Made by a program: the position numbers and the translations under genes. The notes below the pieces were generated by a model, which ran no database searches, was not told the DNA's origin, and saw only the letters and a program-made list of their open reading frames with translations. Positions 47,731-61,474 of a stretch of DNA of 64,000 bases are shown piece by piece. How positions within the stretch are numbered: the stretch's first letter is position 1; each line of letters begins with the position of its first letter. The DNA comes from Candidatus Kapaibacterium sp. (GTDB lineage Bacteria; Bacteroidota; Ignavibacteria; Kapaibacteriales; UBA2268): assembly GCA_937927515.1 (NCBI GenBank), contig CALBDO010000018.1, positions 20,552 through 84,551 on the forward strand, given 5' to 3'.

Positions 47731-49566
47731 ATGATGAATGACGGTTTAATTGACATAAGTTTATTACCATCCCCTTCTGTAATTCTAAATAATTTGGTGA
47801 TTTTGGAAGCCAACCCTAATTTTTCTAAACTACTTCCTAATAGCAAAGAAATAAAAAAAGGAACAAAGATTACAGAGTTAGGTCTGTTTCGCGAAAATCA
47901 AAACCTATTGGATTTTATCAGTAAAATTGAAAATAAAATTGATTTGGATGACTTTTTGCTAATCCTTTGGAACGGTACCATAGTTTTTGCAACAACAAGA
48001 AATTTTAAGCGAAATGGGAATGATTTAATCCTGGTATCTTTTACTCGCTTTTCTATCTCAAAAGCAGAGGATGCGAGTATGTTACTTGGAGATTTTAAAT
48101 ATGCTCAGGATATTATAGATAAATTCGAATTTTTGATTGCCGTACACGACAGGAATTTGAACTTTGTTTTATGTAATAGAAATTTTGAAAAGTTTTTTGG
48201 CTTGTCTCGGCACGAAATCATCGGGAAAAAAATTTCAGAAGTTTTTGGCGACAATGAAATTTCTCGATTACAAATTGAAACCGATTTAGAGCTGTTTCAA
48301 GGCAAAAAACAGCAAGTACATTTACATTTGAACTTATCTGATAAGAATGGACAAATTCATTACCTTGAACTCAATAAATTTTTAATCAATTTCGGTGGCG
48401 AGGATTTTGTCTTTTGTATAACGATAGACTCAAGCGAGCTCGATTACGTTCGCCAACTTTATCGTGAGAGTTCCACATTGTATCGTGCATTGATAGAAAA
48501 CGCTTTCGATGCGATATATTTAATGGAAGGACGAAAGTACAAATATGTTAATCCACGATTTTGTGAACTTACTGGATATACATTTGAAGAATTGACTTCC
48601 CCTGACTTTGATTTCGAAGTTCTTATACCAGAGGAAAGTAAAAAATTCTTGGAAGAAAGATATAAAGCTCGGCTCGAAGGGAAAGAAATTCCAAATCAAT
48701 ATGAACTTCAACTTCTCCATAAATCCGGTAGGAGAGTATTTGTCGAAGTTAGCACAGTATCCGTCGGAAAACCAGGTGAAGTTTTAGTGATGGGAATAAT
48801 GCGAGACATTACACAGCGAAAACTTTATGAACAACAATTAAAAGAATCTGAGGAAAAACTAAGACAGATGAACCTTGCCAAGGATAAATTTTTCAACATC
48901 ATTGCCCACGACCTACGTGCTCCCATCTCTGGTTTAACCTCGATGACAAAATTGCTTCTGGAAAATTATGAAAATCTTGAACCTGAATATACTAAAGATT
49001 TGCTTTCAAATATCCTCGAAGTATCAAATCAAACATTTAATTTGCTGGAAAACCTTCTTCTTTGGGCAAGAACACAAACTGGAACTATCCCATTTAAACC
49101 AGAGGAAACCGATTTATATGAAGTTGTTCTCGCAAGCAAAGTGCTCAACGAACCTAATGCCAAGCAGAAAGGAATTACCATAAACAACTTGGTTCCAGCA
49201 GATTCCTTTGCTTTCGTTGATAGAAATATGATTACCACCGTGGTGAGAAATTTAATTTCGAATGCAGTTAAATTTTCACCCTCCAATACCGAAATAACCA
49301 TAAAATTGAACGATATTGGTGACTTTTACGAATTAATCGTTTCGGATAAAGGTGTAGGAATGACACCCGAGCAACTCGACAAATTATTTAAATTAGGAGA
49401 AAATATTTCAACAGTGGGTACCCAAGGTGAAAAGGGTAGTGGGATTGGGTTGATTTTATGCCAAGAATTCGTCGAAAGAAATGGTGGAAAGATTCGCATT
49501 GAAAGTCAAGTTGGCGAAGGAACAACATTTTTCATTACATTGCCAAAGAGCAAAATTACTGAATAA
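47731..49566 (+). CDS. PAS-domain sensor histidine kinase (no receiver or response regulator adjacent)
   Basis: PAS repeats (LIENAFDAIYLMEGRKYKYVNPRFCELTGYTFEEL); H-box FFNIIAHDLRAPISGL; N-box RNLISNAVKFSP; G-boxes VSDKGVGM, GEKGSGIGLILCQEFVERNGGKI. Confidence 0.94.
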   Translation: MMNDGLIDISLLPSPSVILNNLVILEANPNFSKLLPNSKEIKKGTKITELGLFRENQNLLDFISKIENKIDLDDFLLILWNGTIVFATTRNFKRNGNDLILVSFTRFSISKAEDASMLLGDFKYAQDIIDKFEFLIAVHDRNLNFVLCNRNFEKFFGLSRHEIIGKKISEVFGDNEISRLQIETDLELFQGKKQQVHLHLNLSDKNGQIHYLELNKFLINFGGEDFVFCITIDSSELDYVRQLYRESSTLYRALIENAFDAIYLMEGRKYKYVNPRFCELTGYTFEELTSPDFDFEVLIPEESKKFLEERYKARLEGKEIPNQYELQLLHKSGRRVFVEVSTVSVGKPGEVLVMGIMRDITQRKLYEQQLKESEEKLRQMNLAKDKFFNIIAHDLRAPISGLTSMTKLLLENYENLEPEYTKDLLSNILEVSNQTFNLLENLLLWARTQTGTIPFKPEETDLYEVVLASKVLNEPNAKQKGITINNLVPADSFAFVDRNMITTVVRNLISNAVKFSPSNTEITIKLNDIGDFYELIVSDKGVGMTPEQLDKLFKLGENISTVGTQGEKGSGIGLILCQEFVERNGGKIRIESQVGEGTTFFITLPKSKITE

Positions 49567-49693: not shown

Positions 49694-49720
49694 TGAAAGT
49701 CTTTATGAATAAGACTTTCA
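49694..49720. promoter_or_regulatory. perfect inverted repeat upstream of flagellin
   Basis: TGAAAGTCTT-tatgaat-AAGACTTTCA: 10-bp perfect arms, 7-nt spacer, no T-tract following. Confidence 0.55.
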
Positions 49721-49748
49721 GAGATATTCTATCGATAAATTTTTCCGC

Positions 49749-49763
49749 TGGCACAGTGATTGA
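49749..49763 (+). promoter_or_regulatory. sigma54-like -24/-12 element upstream of flagellin
   Basis: TGGCAC-AGTGA-TTGA; the -12 GC is GA, otherwise a match to TGGCAC-N5-TTGC. 47 nt upstream of the flagellin ATG. Confidence 0.42.
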
Positions 49764-49810
49764 AAAACATACCTTTGAATTTGAATTAATTGTAATCATG
49801 GAGGTATAAA

Positions 49811-50746
49811 ATGCCATTTGCTATTGGAGGTAACTCAAGAATTAGGACAAACATTCCCGCCGAAAATGCTTACAATTCATTGGAAATATCAAACCGTAAT
49901 ATCTCACTTCGCCAGCTAAGGCTCTCTACCGGTAAGCGAATTAACAATCCCGGTGATGATGTTGCTGGATACATTACCTCTCGTGCCTTGCAATCAAGAA
50001 ACGGAGCAATGAAAGCCGCTCTTCTCGCTGTTAGCGATGCTTTTGCAATTACAAATATTGCAATCGAAGCTCTCGACAACCTGTCTCAGAGATTGATGAT
50101 TATCAAAGATACTGCATCCCAAGCAGCAAGTGGAGCTCTCGGGACAGATGAGTTGGTATCTCTGGCGAAAGCAGCCTATCGTATGGCACAACAAATTCAA
50201 ACCATTGTCGATACCACCGTTTATGGGGGCCGTCAGCTCCTCGATGGCACATTCTCTGCGGATTTTGTAATTGGTATGAACGCAAAATATGATTTAGTTA
50301 CTCTTTCTGTGGACCTAACTACCTATAATGTCGATTATAATATTCCAAGTGGAAGTTTCGATATCAAAGCTATGACATCGCAACACTTCGCTGGGGTTAG
50401 CAATTTAGACCTAACTAGTTTAAATGCAGTGTCATCGACAGACCTTGGAATTTTTTCCACTACTCAAATCAACTTAACTATTCAGAGTTTGAATCAGGCT
50501 TTGCAAAATGTCAACAAAGTTGCTTCTCTGCTTGGTGGCATTAGTAATCGTTTAAGTTCGCAAGAGGATTTGCTGAAAGCTCAAATCACAAATTACAATG
50601 CTGCAATATCCAGAATAGAAGATGCTGATGTTGCTCTCGAGCAACTCGAGCTAATAAAAGCACAATTTTTGCAACAAGCCTCGTTGATTTCGCTTGCTCA
50701 AGCAAATGCCAATCCACAAGCATTTCTGCAATTGATAAGGGGATAA
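49811..50746 (+). CDS. flagellin (short, D0/D1-dominated)
   Basis: N-terminal NIPAENAYNSLEISNRNISLRQLRLSTGKRINNPGDDVAGYITSRALQSR and C-terminal ISRIEDADVALEQLELIKAQFLQQASLISLAQANANPQAFLQLIRG; SD GGAGG upstream. Confidence 0.92.
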   Translation: MPFAIGGNSRIRTNIPAENAYNSLEISNRNISLRQLRLSTGKRINNPGDDVAGYITSRALQSRNGAMKAALLAVSDAFAITNIAIEALDNLSQRLMIIKDTASQAASGALGTDELVSLAKAAYRMAQQIQTIVDTTVYGGRQLLDGTFSADFVIGMNAKYDLVTLSVDLTTYNVDYNIPSGSFDIKAMTSQHFAGVSNLDLTSLNAVSSTDLGIFSTTQINLTIQSLNQALQNVNKVASLLGGISNRLSSQEDLLKAQITNYNAAISRIEDADVALEQLELIKAQFLQQASLISLAQANANPQAFLQLIRG

Positions 50747-50786
50747 AATAAACTGTCTACCCAACTCCTACCATACCTCGAATTAT

Positions 50787-50815
50787 GGCAAATCAAGGGG
50801 GGGATTTGCCTTTTT
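50787..50815 (+). terminator. Rho-independent terminator downstream of flagellin
   Basis: GGCAAATC-aagggggg-GATTTGCC-TTTTT: 8-bp perfect stem followed by a T-run. Confidence 0.85.
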
Positions 50816-50816
50816 C

Positions 50817-52535
50817 TTATAAGATTAACTTTTCCTTCTGATTGAACTTTTTTACTTCCTTGCCAAAGACTATGTAATTTGGAGTAAAAAGTAAAATCTC
50901 CCGATGTTTTAATATCGAACTAATTAATATTTTTTTCGGAACTTTTTTTGAGTAAATGTAGTAAATCACGTAGTAATTTGGATATTTATTTAACCATTTT
51001 ACTTCCTCAAGCCCAACCTTATTTAAAGGAATCGGTAGAAATATGATTTTTTTGGATTTGTTTTTTCCAAAATAAAGACCTTCGGTATACCATGCAAGTT
51101 GTGGGTTGAGCGTGTCCGAATCATTCACTTTGTGGAACACATAAACAACTGTGTCCACATTGTGCTTTTTCAAGAGTGCGGAGGTTTTCTCTCCACCAAA
51201 TACATCGCCAGGAATTCTATTTTCTCTATCCAAGAGTGTAGTAAATATAATAGCAACAGTTATAAGGAATATTACTACAATTATGGATTTTGAACGGTAT
51301 AATGAAATTGTTTTTTTATGCTTTTCAAACCAGTAGATAAAGATTAACAAGATTACAATCGAAGATACAAATATGGATTTTAATACGAAGATTGGATTTA
51401 TTTCCAAGTCTTTTAAAGAAGTTCGTATCTCAGGCGAAAAATACCAGACTATACTTAATATAAAAAATACCATAGAAAAGAAACGAAAAGTCAGGTTTTG
51501 CTTATCTAAAATAAGAGTAACAAATTCCAAAGACAGGTAGAAAGCTGGTATTAACAGATAGAGGGTATAGTATTGCATTTTTGTTGGGGCAAGGGAAAAA
51601 ATAATAATTCCAGAGAGAAACCAAAAAAAGAAGATGTCTGAAAGAAAATTTTGTGTGTAGAAGAAAGACTTGAACCTGGAGGATTTTAATCTCACAAAGA
51701 TATTTAAAAATGAAAATATCAAAATAGGGTTCGAAACAATCAATTGATTTAAGTAATAAAATAACCCTAATGGTTTTGCATTCCCTTCAACAATTGAATA
51801 CAAGTGGGGTGGAAAAAAGGCAGAGATAAATGCACTTCCATATTTAATACTCATATAAATGTACCAGGGAAGCGATATAAAAAAGCCAATCGCAAAGAAG
51901 AGCAACGCTAATTTAAATTTTTTCCGAGAAAAGTAATGATAAATAAAAATCAAAAAAAGTAGTGGGATAAAAGAAAGAACAATTTTGGTCATTAATGCAA
52001 GGGAAAAAGTCAAGGTAATTAAAATGCCATAGGCAATTTCTTTGGTCTTGGAATTTGACTGTAAAAAATTTAAAACTACTACAAGATTCGACACAATAAA
52101 AAAGATTAAAGGAATATCGAGCATTCCTTGCCGTGAGTATGTAAACCAATGGCTCGACAGAAGAAGATTAATTGAAACAAGGAAGGAAGTTTGGGATTCG
52201 AAACAACGAGATATGCAAAGCAAGAATAAAAAAATAATTACAGCGGAAGAAATTATGGAAAAAAGGCGAATCGAAAATAGGTTTACACCAAAAAATTTCA
52301 TATTCAATGCCATTATCCAAGGAACGAGCGGCGGGTATGTAGAAGAGTACAAACCACCGAGGGAGACCGAAGTTTGGTCCCACCAAAGATTTGTGTTTAA
52401 AATCTCGCGTGCTCGATATGCGTATAAACCTTCATCCCAAGGTTGAACCTCGCCTCTTTGAATATTGAATGCAAGCAGTATTATAGCAAGAATGAACGCG
52501 GAAAAACTTATTGATAATAAATCTTTTTGGTTCAT
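50817..52535 (-). CDS. ArnT/PMT-like glycosyltransferase family membrane protein
   Basis: GEVQPWDEGLYAYRAREILNTNLWWDQTSVSLGGLYSSTYPPLVPWIMALNMKFFGVNLFSIRLFS; many TM helices. Confidence 0.85.
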   Translation of the reverse strand: MNQKDLLSISFSAFILAIILLAFNIQRGEVQPWDEGLYAYRAREILNTNLWWDQTSVSLGGLYSSTYPPLVPWIMALNMKFFGVNLFSIRLFSIISSAVIIFLFLLCISRCFESQTSFLVSINLLLSSHWFTYSRQGMLDIPLIFFIVSNLVVVLNFLQSNSKTKEIAYGILITLTFSLALMTKIVLSFIPLLFLIFIYHYFSRKKFKLALLFFAIGFFISLPWYIYMSIKYGSAFISAFFPPHLYSIVEGNAKPLGLFYYLNQLIVSNPILIFSFLNIFVRLKSSRFKSFFYTQNFLSDIFFFWFLSGIIIFSLAPTKMQYYTLYLLIPAFYLSLEFVTLILDKQNLTFRFFSMVFFILSIVWYFSPEIRTSLKDLEINPIFVLKSIFVSSIVILLIFIYWFEKHKKTISLYRSKSIIVVIFLITVAIIFTTLLDRENRIPGDVFGGEKTSALLKKHNVDTVVYVFHKVNDSDTLNPQLAWYTEGLYFGKNKSKKIIFLPIPLNKVGLEEVKWLNKYPNYYVIYYIYSKKVPKKILISSILKHREILLFTPNYIVFGKEVKKFNQKEKLIL

Positions 52536-60821: not shown

Positions 60822-60836
60822 TGGCATAATTATTGC
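60822..60836 (+). promoter_or_regulatory. sigma54-type -24/-12 promoter candidate
   Basis: TGGCAT-AATTA-TTGC with exact GG-N10-GC spacing, intergenic, 63 nt upstream of the T9SS-like gene start. Confidence 0.55.
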
Positions 60837-60898
60837 ATTCTTCTTTGTTTGCAAAAAAAAGTAAGCAAGTATGTTGATTTTATTATACAAGGTGATTT

Positions 60899-61474
60899 AT
60901 GAGATACTTCTTTAGAGTTTCTACACTTTTTCTCATAACTTCTTTCTTTGCGGTTGTACCAGGTTTTTCTACCCCTGGTTTGAAAATCGACCGCTCTGTC
61001 ATCGGTTCTGGTGGTATGCTGACTGTTAAAAACTCCGCAAATTTGAACCTGTCTGGTTTATTGGGCCAGGTTGCAATCGACAGGATTTCCAATGGAAATA
61101 GGGTACTTTACCAAGGATTTTGGGTACCCACCGAAACACCCACCGATGTTTCGGAGCCCATATCTCTTAGCAACCAGATTTCCAATTTTCCAAATCCTGC
61201 TTCCTTTTCTACCACCTTCCGTTACACTCTGGAAGAAAATTCTCTCGTCTCTCTCAAAGTTTACGACATTGTTGGAAACCTCGTTAAAATTCTTGTTGAT
61301 GGTTTTCAACCAGCTGGGAACCAAGAAATTGTCTGGGACCTTAAAAACGACAACCTTGTCGATGTACCTTCTGGTAACTACTTTTATGAACTAACTATAA
61401 CATCCGGCCAAATCGCTGGATTTAGCGAAACGAAAACACAAACCTATCGAAATATCCTTGTTATCGTTAAATAA
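60899..61474 (+). CDS. secreted protein with T9SS type A/FlgD-like C-terminal domain
   Basis: Signal peptide; FPNPASFSTTFRYTLEENSLVSLKVYDIVGNLVKILVDGFQPAGNQEIVWDLKNDNLVDVPSGNYFYELTI. Confidence 0.82.
   Translation: MRYFFRVSTLFLITSFFAVVPGFSTPGLKIDRSVIGSGGMLTVKNSANLNLSGLLGQVAIDRISNGNRVLYQGFWVPTETPTDVSEPISLSNQISNFPNPASFSTTFRYTLEENSLVSLKVYDIVGNLVKILVDGFQPAGNQEIVWDLKNDNLVDVPSGNYFYELTITSGQIAGFSETKTQTYRNILVIVK

What the first reader, a model, noticed from the sequence alone, without database searches (positions are those of the whole stretch)
49694..50815. Solitary flagellin gene with its own regulatory cassette and terminator
A clear flagellin (conserved D0/D1 ends, short middle) stands alone: no hook, basal body, export, cap or chaperone gene lies anywhere in the 64 kb. 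It has a perfect 10-bp inverted repeat at 49694-49720, a TGGCAC-N5-TTGA sigma54-like element at 49749, a strong SD and a strong terminator. Most Bacteroidota lack flagella, so this is either a flagellated deep-branching lineage or a flagellin-like filament or adhesin. The inverted repeat lies at roughly -67 relative to the predicted TSS, within the range of an upstream activator site.
Basis: partly seen in the sequence, partly recalled or inferred. Interest (0 to 1): 0.6.

Follow-up and report, generated by a model that had tools for sequence, protein, structure and literature searches.

The report
Early flagellin of a two-flagellin bacterium
This is an ordinary flagellin gene of a fully flagellated, uncultured bacterium (Kapabacteria); it stands apart from the other flagellar genes but carries the same sigma-54 switch as the rod operons, while its sister flagellin uses sigma-28, so the two flagellins are probably made one after the other.

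Summary
The gene is real: a 311-aa flagellin at 49811-50746 with intact D0/D1 ends, a sigma54-like site, a strong SD and a terminator. "Solitary" holds only for the 64-kb window. The genome (Kapabacteria) encodes a complete, dispersed flagellum: flgBC-fliEFGHIJ-flgD, flgFGAHI-J-N-K-L-motA, fliPQR-flhBA, flhF-fliA, rpoN, and a second flagellin, fliC2, beside fliS-fliD-flaG. The adhesin/exotic-filament reading is not supported.

The sigma54 guess holds up strongly. Across the family, 26 of 30 orthologues (single or first-in-tandem) keep TGGCAY-N5-TTG upstream and none has a sigma28 site. The sister flagellin is the opposite: sigma28 (TAAAGTTT-N11-GCCGATAA-like) in 31 of 35. The rod operons flgB (25/28) and flgF (24/27) share the sigma54 site. 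So this is the middle-class flagellin of a two-sigma, two-flagellin scheme like Campylobacter FlaB/FlaA or Shewanella FlaA/FlaB; it probably builds the hook-proximal filament (inferred).

The inverted repeat is not supported as a regulator site: it is not conserved within the genus, and about 5 such repeats per 64 kb occur in this genome.

Interest is modest: a new member of a known kind in an uncultured lineage, with an atypical -12 element.

The parts
49749..49766 (+). sigma54 -24/-12 promoter element TGGCAC-AGTGA-TTGAAAA; predicted TSS near 49775
   Evidence: same element upstream of the orthologues in 26 of 30 family members and upstream of the flgB and flgF operons
49800..49804 (+). Shine-Dalgarno GGAGG
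   Evidence: sequence
49811..50746 (+). fliC1: flagellin, 311 aa, D0/D1 with a short middle and no D2/D3
50787..50820 (+). intrinsic terminator (8-bp stem, T-rich tail)
49694..49720 (.). perfect 10-bp inverted repeat with 7-nt loop, centre about -68 from the predicted TSS; probably chance
   Evidence: not conserved; such repeats are common in this genome
47731..49566 (+). PAS-PAS histidine kinase gene directly upstream; neighbour in 3 of 3 testable congeners, not in other genera; link to fliC1 not shown

Best explanation
fliC1 is one of two flagellins of a normal, complete flagellum whose genes are scattered over the genome. Proposed mechanism: when the export gate and rotor base are in place, an NtrC-type activator (candidate: the response regulator/PAS-kinase pair beside cheR at C3:32893-35416) opens RpoN (sigma54) promoters of the rod operons and of fliC1. 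After hook completion FliA (sigma28) is freed and turns on fliC2-fliS-fliD. FliC1 is therefore made earlier and forms the first, hook-proximal part of the filament; FliC2 forms the bulk. Shown: gene content, the two promoter classes and their conservation. Inferred: sigma-factor dependence, timing, which activator, and position in the filament.
For: Complete flagellar set in the genome with an RpoN carrying an intact ARRTVAKYRE box, a FliA-family sigma factor above its curated cut-off and four strong sigma54 activators. This family: sigma54 site in 24/30 (exact TTGGCAY-N5-TTG) or 26/30 (first T free) fliC1 genes that are single or first in tandem, 0 sigma28; sigma28 (>=13 of 16 matches) in 31/35 fliC2 genes. 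Shuffles expect 0.15 where 26 were seen and 0.1 where 31 were seen. The position after TGGCAY is a purine in 31/31 flagellin sites although the search did not ask for it, as in the sigma54 consensus. flgB operon: sigma54 in 25/28, sigma28 in 0; flgF operon: 24/27 and 1. TTGGCAYR-N4-TTGNWNW occurs 231 times against 22 for the reversed pattern in 24 genomes (summed). The same logic is shown elsewhere: C. jejuni RpoN drives rod, hook and minor flagellin FlaB, FliA drives FlaA (PMC11187230); Shewanella FlaA is FliA-independent and proximal (PMC6299084).
Against: No transcript or filament data. All flagellin sigma54 sites lack the canonical C of TTGC (0/31). Two fliC2 genes also have a sigma54-like site. 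Four fliC1 genes have no recognisable site. No FlgM was identified. Counts are over related genomes and are not independent events.
Confidence: 0.72

Rival explanations
1. Both flagellins are mixed along the filament, or FliC1 is used under particular conditions (alternative flagellin), and the sigma54 promoter serves nutrient or stress control rather than assembly order.
For: sigma54 sites also lie before non-flagellar genes (window 60822-60839 before a secreted-looking protein); a histidine kinase gene is the upstream neighbour in the genus.
Against: The same sigma54 element precedes the rod operons flgB and flgF in nearly all flagellated family members; flagellar genes of a congener were reported as largely constitutively expressed over the day (PMC6338057).
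Confidence: 0.2
2. FliC1 is not a motility flagellin but a separate surface filament or adhesin.
For: The gene is far from the other flagellar genes; a cell-surface flagellin homologue is among the weaker solved matches (3k8v).
Against: 67% identical to FliC2; best solved matches are ordinary flagellar filaments; among 34 family genomes the four that lack flagellins (G011, G028, G029, G030) also lack flgF and flgB.
Confidence: 0.03
3. The inverted repeat 49694-49720 with the adjacent kinase forms a dedicated regulatory cassette for fliC1.
For: Repeat centre at about -68; the kinase is a conserved neighbour within the genus.
Against: Repeat absent from the same place in four congeners whose fliC1 is 90-96% identical; perfect 10-bp repeats occur about 5 times per 64 kb; the kinase is no neighbour in other genera.
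Confidence: 0.05

Closest known systems
Campylobacter jejuni / Helicobacter pylori FlaB (RpoN class) and FlaA (FliA class)
   Same: Two similar flagellins; one shares sigma54 control with rod genes, the other has sigma28 control; FlhF and an FlgS/FlgR-like kinase/activator pair are present.
   Different: Different phylum; here the sigma28 flagellin sits with fliS-fliD-flaG and the sigma54 one stands alone or in tandem; the -12 element is TTGA/TTGT, not TTGC; expression not tested.
Shewanella putrefaciens/oneidensis polar flagellins FlaA (FliA-independent, proximal) and FlaB (FliA-dependent, bulk)
   Same: Early and late flagellin from separate promoters.
   Different: In Shewanella flaA lies just upstream of flaB and both depend on RpoN and FlrA (PMC6299084). 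Here the two genes lie on different contigs with different promoter classes.
Ca. Thermonerobacter thiotrophicus (bin MS-B_bin-24), a congener
   Same: Flagellar genes present and not in one cluster (PMC6338057); orthologue 94% identical with the same sigma54 site (L055).
   Different: The passages of the paper that I read do not discuss flagellin paralogues or promoters.

Membership tests
Bacterial flagellin (FliC) | Flagellin_N and Flagellin_C domains at the two ends | tested here: met
   both far above cut-off
Bacterial flagellin (FliC) | Fold of a flagellar filament subunit | tested here: met
   model of low confidence (pLDDT 59.7), but the best PDB matches are flagellar filaments, E about 1e-9, TM about 0.7; sequence matches likewise
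Bacterial flagellin (FliC) | Genome has rod, ring, export gate, cap and chaperone genes | tested here: met
Bacterial flagellin (FliC) | Protein is in the flagellum | not testable with these tools
   needs proteomics of flagella
sigma54-dependent promoter | GG of -24 and TTG of -12 at fixed spacing | tested here: met
   conserved
sigma54-dependent promoter | C after TTG in the -12 element (TTGC) | tested here: not met
   TTGA here; 0 of 31 flagellin sites have TTGC, though some flgF sites do. For this reason I call it sigma54-type, not proven sigma54-dependent
sigma54-dependent promoter | Genome encodes RpoN and AAA+ activators | tested here: met
sigma54-dependent promoter | Transcription lost without rpoN | not testable with these tools
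   needs genetics
Two-flagellin scheme of the FlaB(RpoN)/FlaA(FliA) type | One flagellin in the sigma54 class with rod genes, the other in the sigma28 class | tested here: met
   by promoter motif only:
Two-flagellin scheme of the FlaB(RpoN)/FlaA(FliA) type | sigma54 flagellin located next to the hook | not testable with these tools
   needs imaging

The most novel reading that the evidence does not exclude
The sigma54/sigma28 division of flagellins arose more than once on the Bacteroidota side of the tree: in another family of the order (f9: G043, G051, G058) the sigma54 and sigma28 flagellins group with each other and not with the two types of this family (node support 0.954). That would mean selection repeatedly builds an early/late flagellin pair. 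The alternative is gene conversion between paralogues.
Probability: 0.35. Interest if true: 0.45.

Novelty: new member of a known kind. Interest (0 to 1): 0.3.

Why it matters
It shows that a lone flagellin gene in a 64-kb window is an effect of dispersed flagellar genes. It also extends the early/late two-flagellin design, known mainly from Proteobacteria and Campylobacterota (own knowledge plus the papers read), to Kapabacteria, with more than 20 genera in which the promoter logic can be compared. Why many bacteria keep several flagellins is described as mostly unknown (PMC6299084), and a recurrent promoter split would give a clean comparative test.

Tried and rejected
Inverted repeat as an operator: searched genome-wide (only this copy) and in relatives (not conserved); the first count in the rest of the genome was spoiled by runs of N and was redone. 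A second motif, TTGGCA-N6-TTTCAW, seen before flhF and some flagellins, gave 6 hits against 0 controls: too few to claim. The structure model is of low confidence and serves only as agreement. The treekit tree finished but its display failed; FastTree was used instead, and its deepest nodes are weak (0.13-0.40), so the FliC1 group is supported only without its earliest branches (0.96). CP058732 is not in the annotated collections; the I. album genome paper is not held.

Full report
Observation. The protein has Flagellin_N and Flagellin_C, and its nearest solved relatives are ordinary flagellar filament subunits such as Bacillus subtilis flagellin. The AlphaFold model has low confidence (pLDDT 59.7), so the fold match is agreement only. 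No other flagellar gene lies in the window.

Not solitary. The window lies in a 2.39-Mb genome, 98% complete, whose nearest named relatives are Ca. Kapaibacterium isolate Ch6 and the MS-B_bin-24 genome; the latter belongs to the Ca. Thermonerobacter thiotrophicus paper. The genome has flgB-flgC-fliE-fliF-G-H-I-J-flgD on C20, flgF-G-A-H-I-J-N-K-L-motA and fliC2-fliS-fliD-flaG on C2, fliP-Q-R-flhB-A on C19, flhF-(MinD-like)-fliA on C10 and rpoN on C22. Genes without a family scan (fliE, fliG-J, fliP-R, flhB, flgC, flgB, flgF, flgG) are named from their sequence, size and gene order. A congener was already reported to have flagellar genes that do not form a single cluster and that are transcribed in situ (PMC6338057).

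Two promoter classes. fliC1 has TGGCAC-N5-TTGA; fliC2 has TAAAGTTT-N11-GTCGATAA, 15 of 16 matches to the sigma28 consensus. I took 110 flagellin genes from about 45 relatives. In this family, fliC1 genes that are single or first in tandem carry the sigma54 site in 24 of 30 cases (26 of 30 if the first T is free) and never sigma28; second-in-tandem copies (17) carry neither, as expected if co-transcribed; fliC2 genes carry sigma28 in 31 of 35. Dinucleotide shuffles expect 0.15 and 0.1 where 26 and 31 were seen in the two order-wide groups. The intergenic regions are otherwise visibly unlike each other.

Link to assembly order. The same sigma54 element precedes the flgB operon in 25 of 28 genomes and lies within 600 bp upstream of flgF in 24 of 27, with sigma28 in 0 and 1. 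So fliC1 shares its promoter class with the rod genes, and fliC2 is in the late class. In C. jejuni the RpoN class includes rod, hook and the minor flagellin FlaB, and FliA drives FlaA (PMC11187230); in Shewanella putrefaciens the FliA-independent FlaA forms the proximal segment (PMC6299084). By analogy FliC1 should be the early, hook-proximal subunit. That last step is inference.

Regulator. Four proteins have strong sigma54-activator domains. The one at C3:32893-34320 (receiver-AAA-HTH) lies next to a PAS histidine kinase and near cheR and a CheY-like gene and is my candidate for an FlgR/FlgS-like pair. The kinase just upstream of fliC1 (47731-49566) is a conserved neighbour in the three testable congeners but not in other genera, so a functional link is unproven.

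Inverted repeat. It occurs once in the genome, is absent from the same place in four congeners, and perfect repeats of that size occur about 4.7 times per 64 kb. It is best treated as chance until tested.

Atypical -12. No flagellin sigma54 site in the set has TTGC; 19 have TTGT, 11 TTGA, 1 TTGG. Some flgF sites and other genomic sites do have TTGC. Genome-wide the element is about ten times more frequent than its reversed control (231 against 22, summed), so RpoN-type sites are real here but relaxed at -12.

Breadth. Outside this family the picture is mixed: one other family (f9) shows the same sigma54/sigma28 split with its own, separately clustering flagellins; others (for example f4, f8, f10) show sigma28-type sites only. 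Whether the split is old and overwritten by gene conversion, or arose repeatedly, is open.

Verdict. An ordinary, dispersed flagellin in a flagellated lineage, but in the sigma54 class.

Noticed in passing
window 60822-60839, before ORF 60899-61474: A textbook sigma54 site TTGGCATAATTATTGCAT about 60 bp before a small secreted-looking protein with an FlgD-Ig / Por-secretion-tail-like C-terminus.
   Followed up: partly
L050, L143, L129 (G043, G051, G058): A second family of the order has its own sigma54 flagellin and sigma28 flagellin that cluster together in the tree: recurrent split or gene conversion.
   Followed up: partly
L147, L028, L034, L043 and others: Tandem fliC1 duplicates are common in the family; the second copy has no promoter motif of its own.
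   Followed up: partly
upstream of flhF (G000 C10:35121, in L021), L073, L078: Recurring TTGGCA-N6-TTTCAT motif, a possible sigma54 variant or other promoter; 6 hits, 0 controls.
   Followed up: partly
window 50817-52535: Convergent PMT-like glycosyltransferase gene, syntenic with fliC1 in congeners; no link to flagellin glycosylation shown.
   Followed up: no
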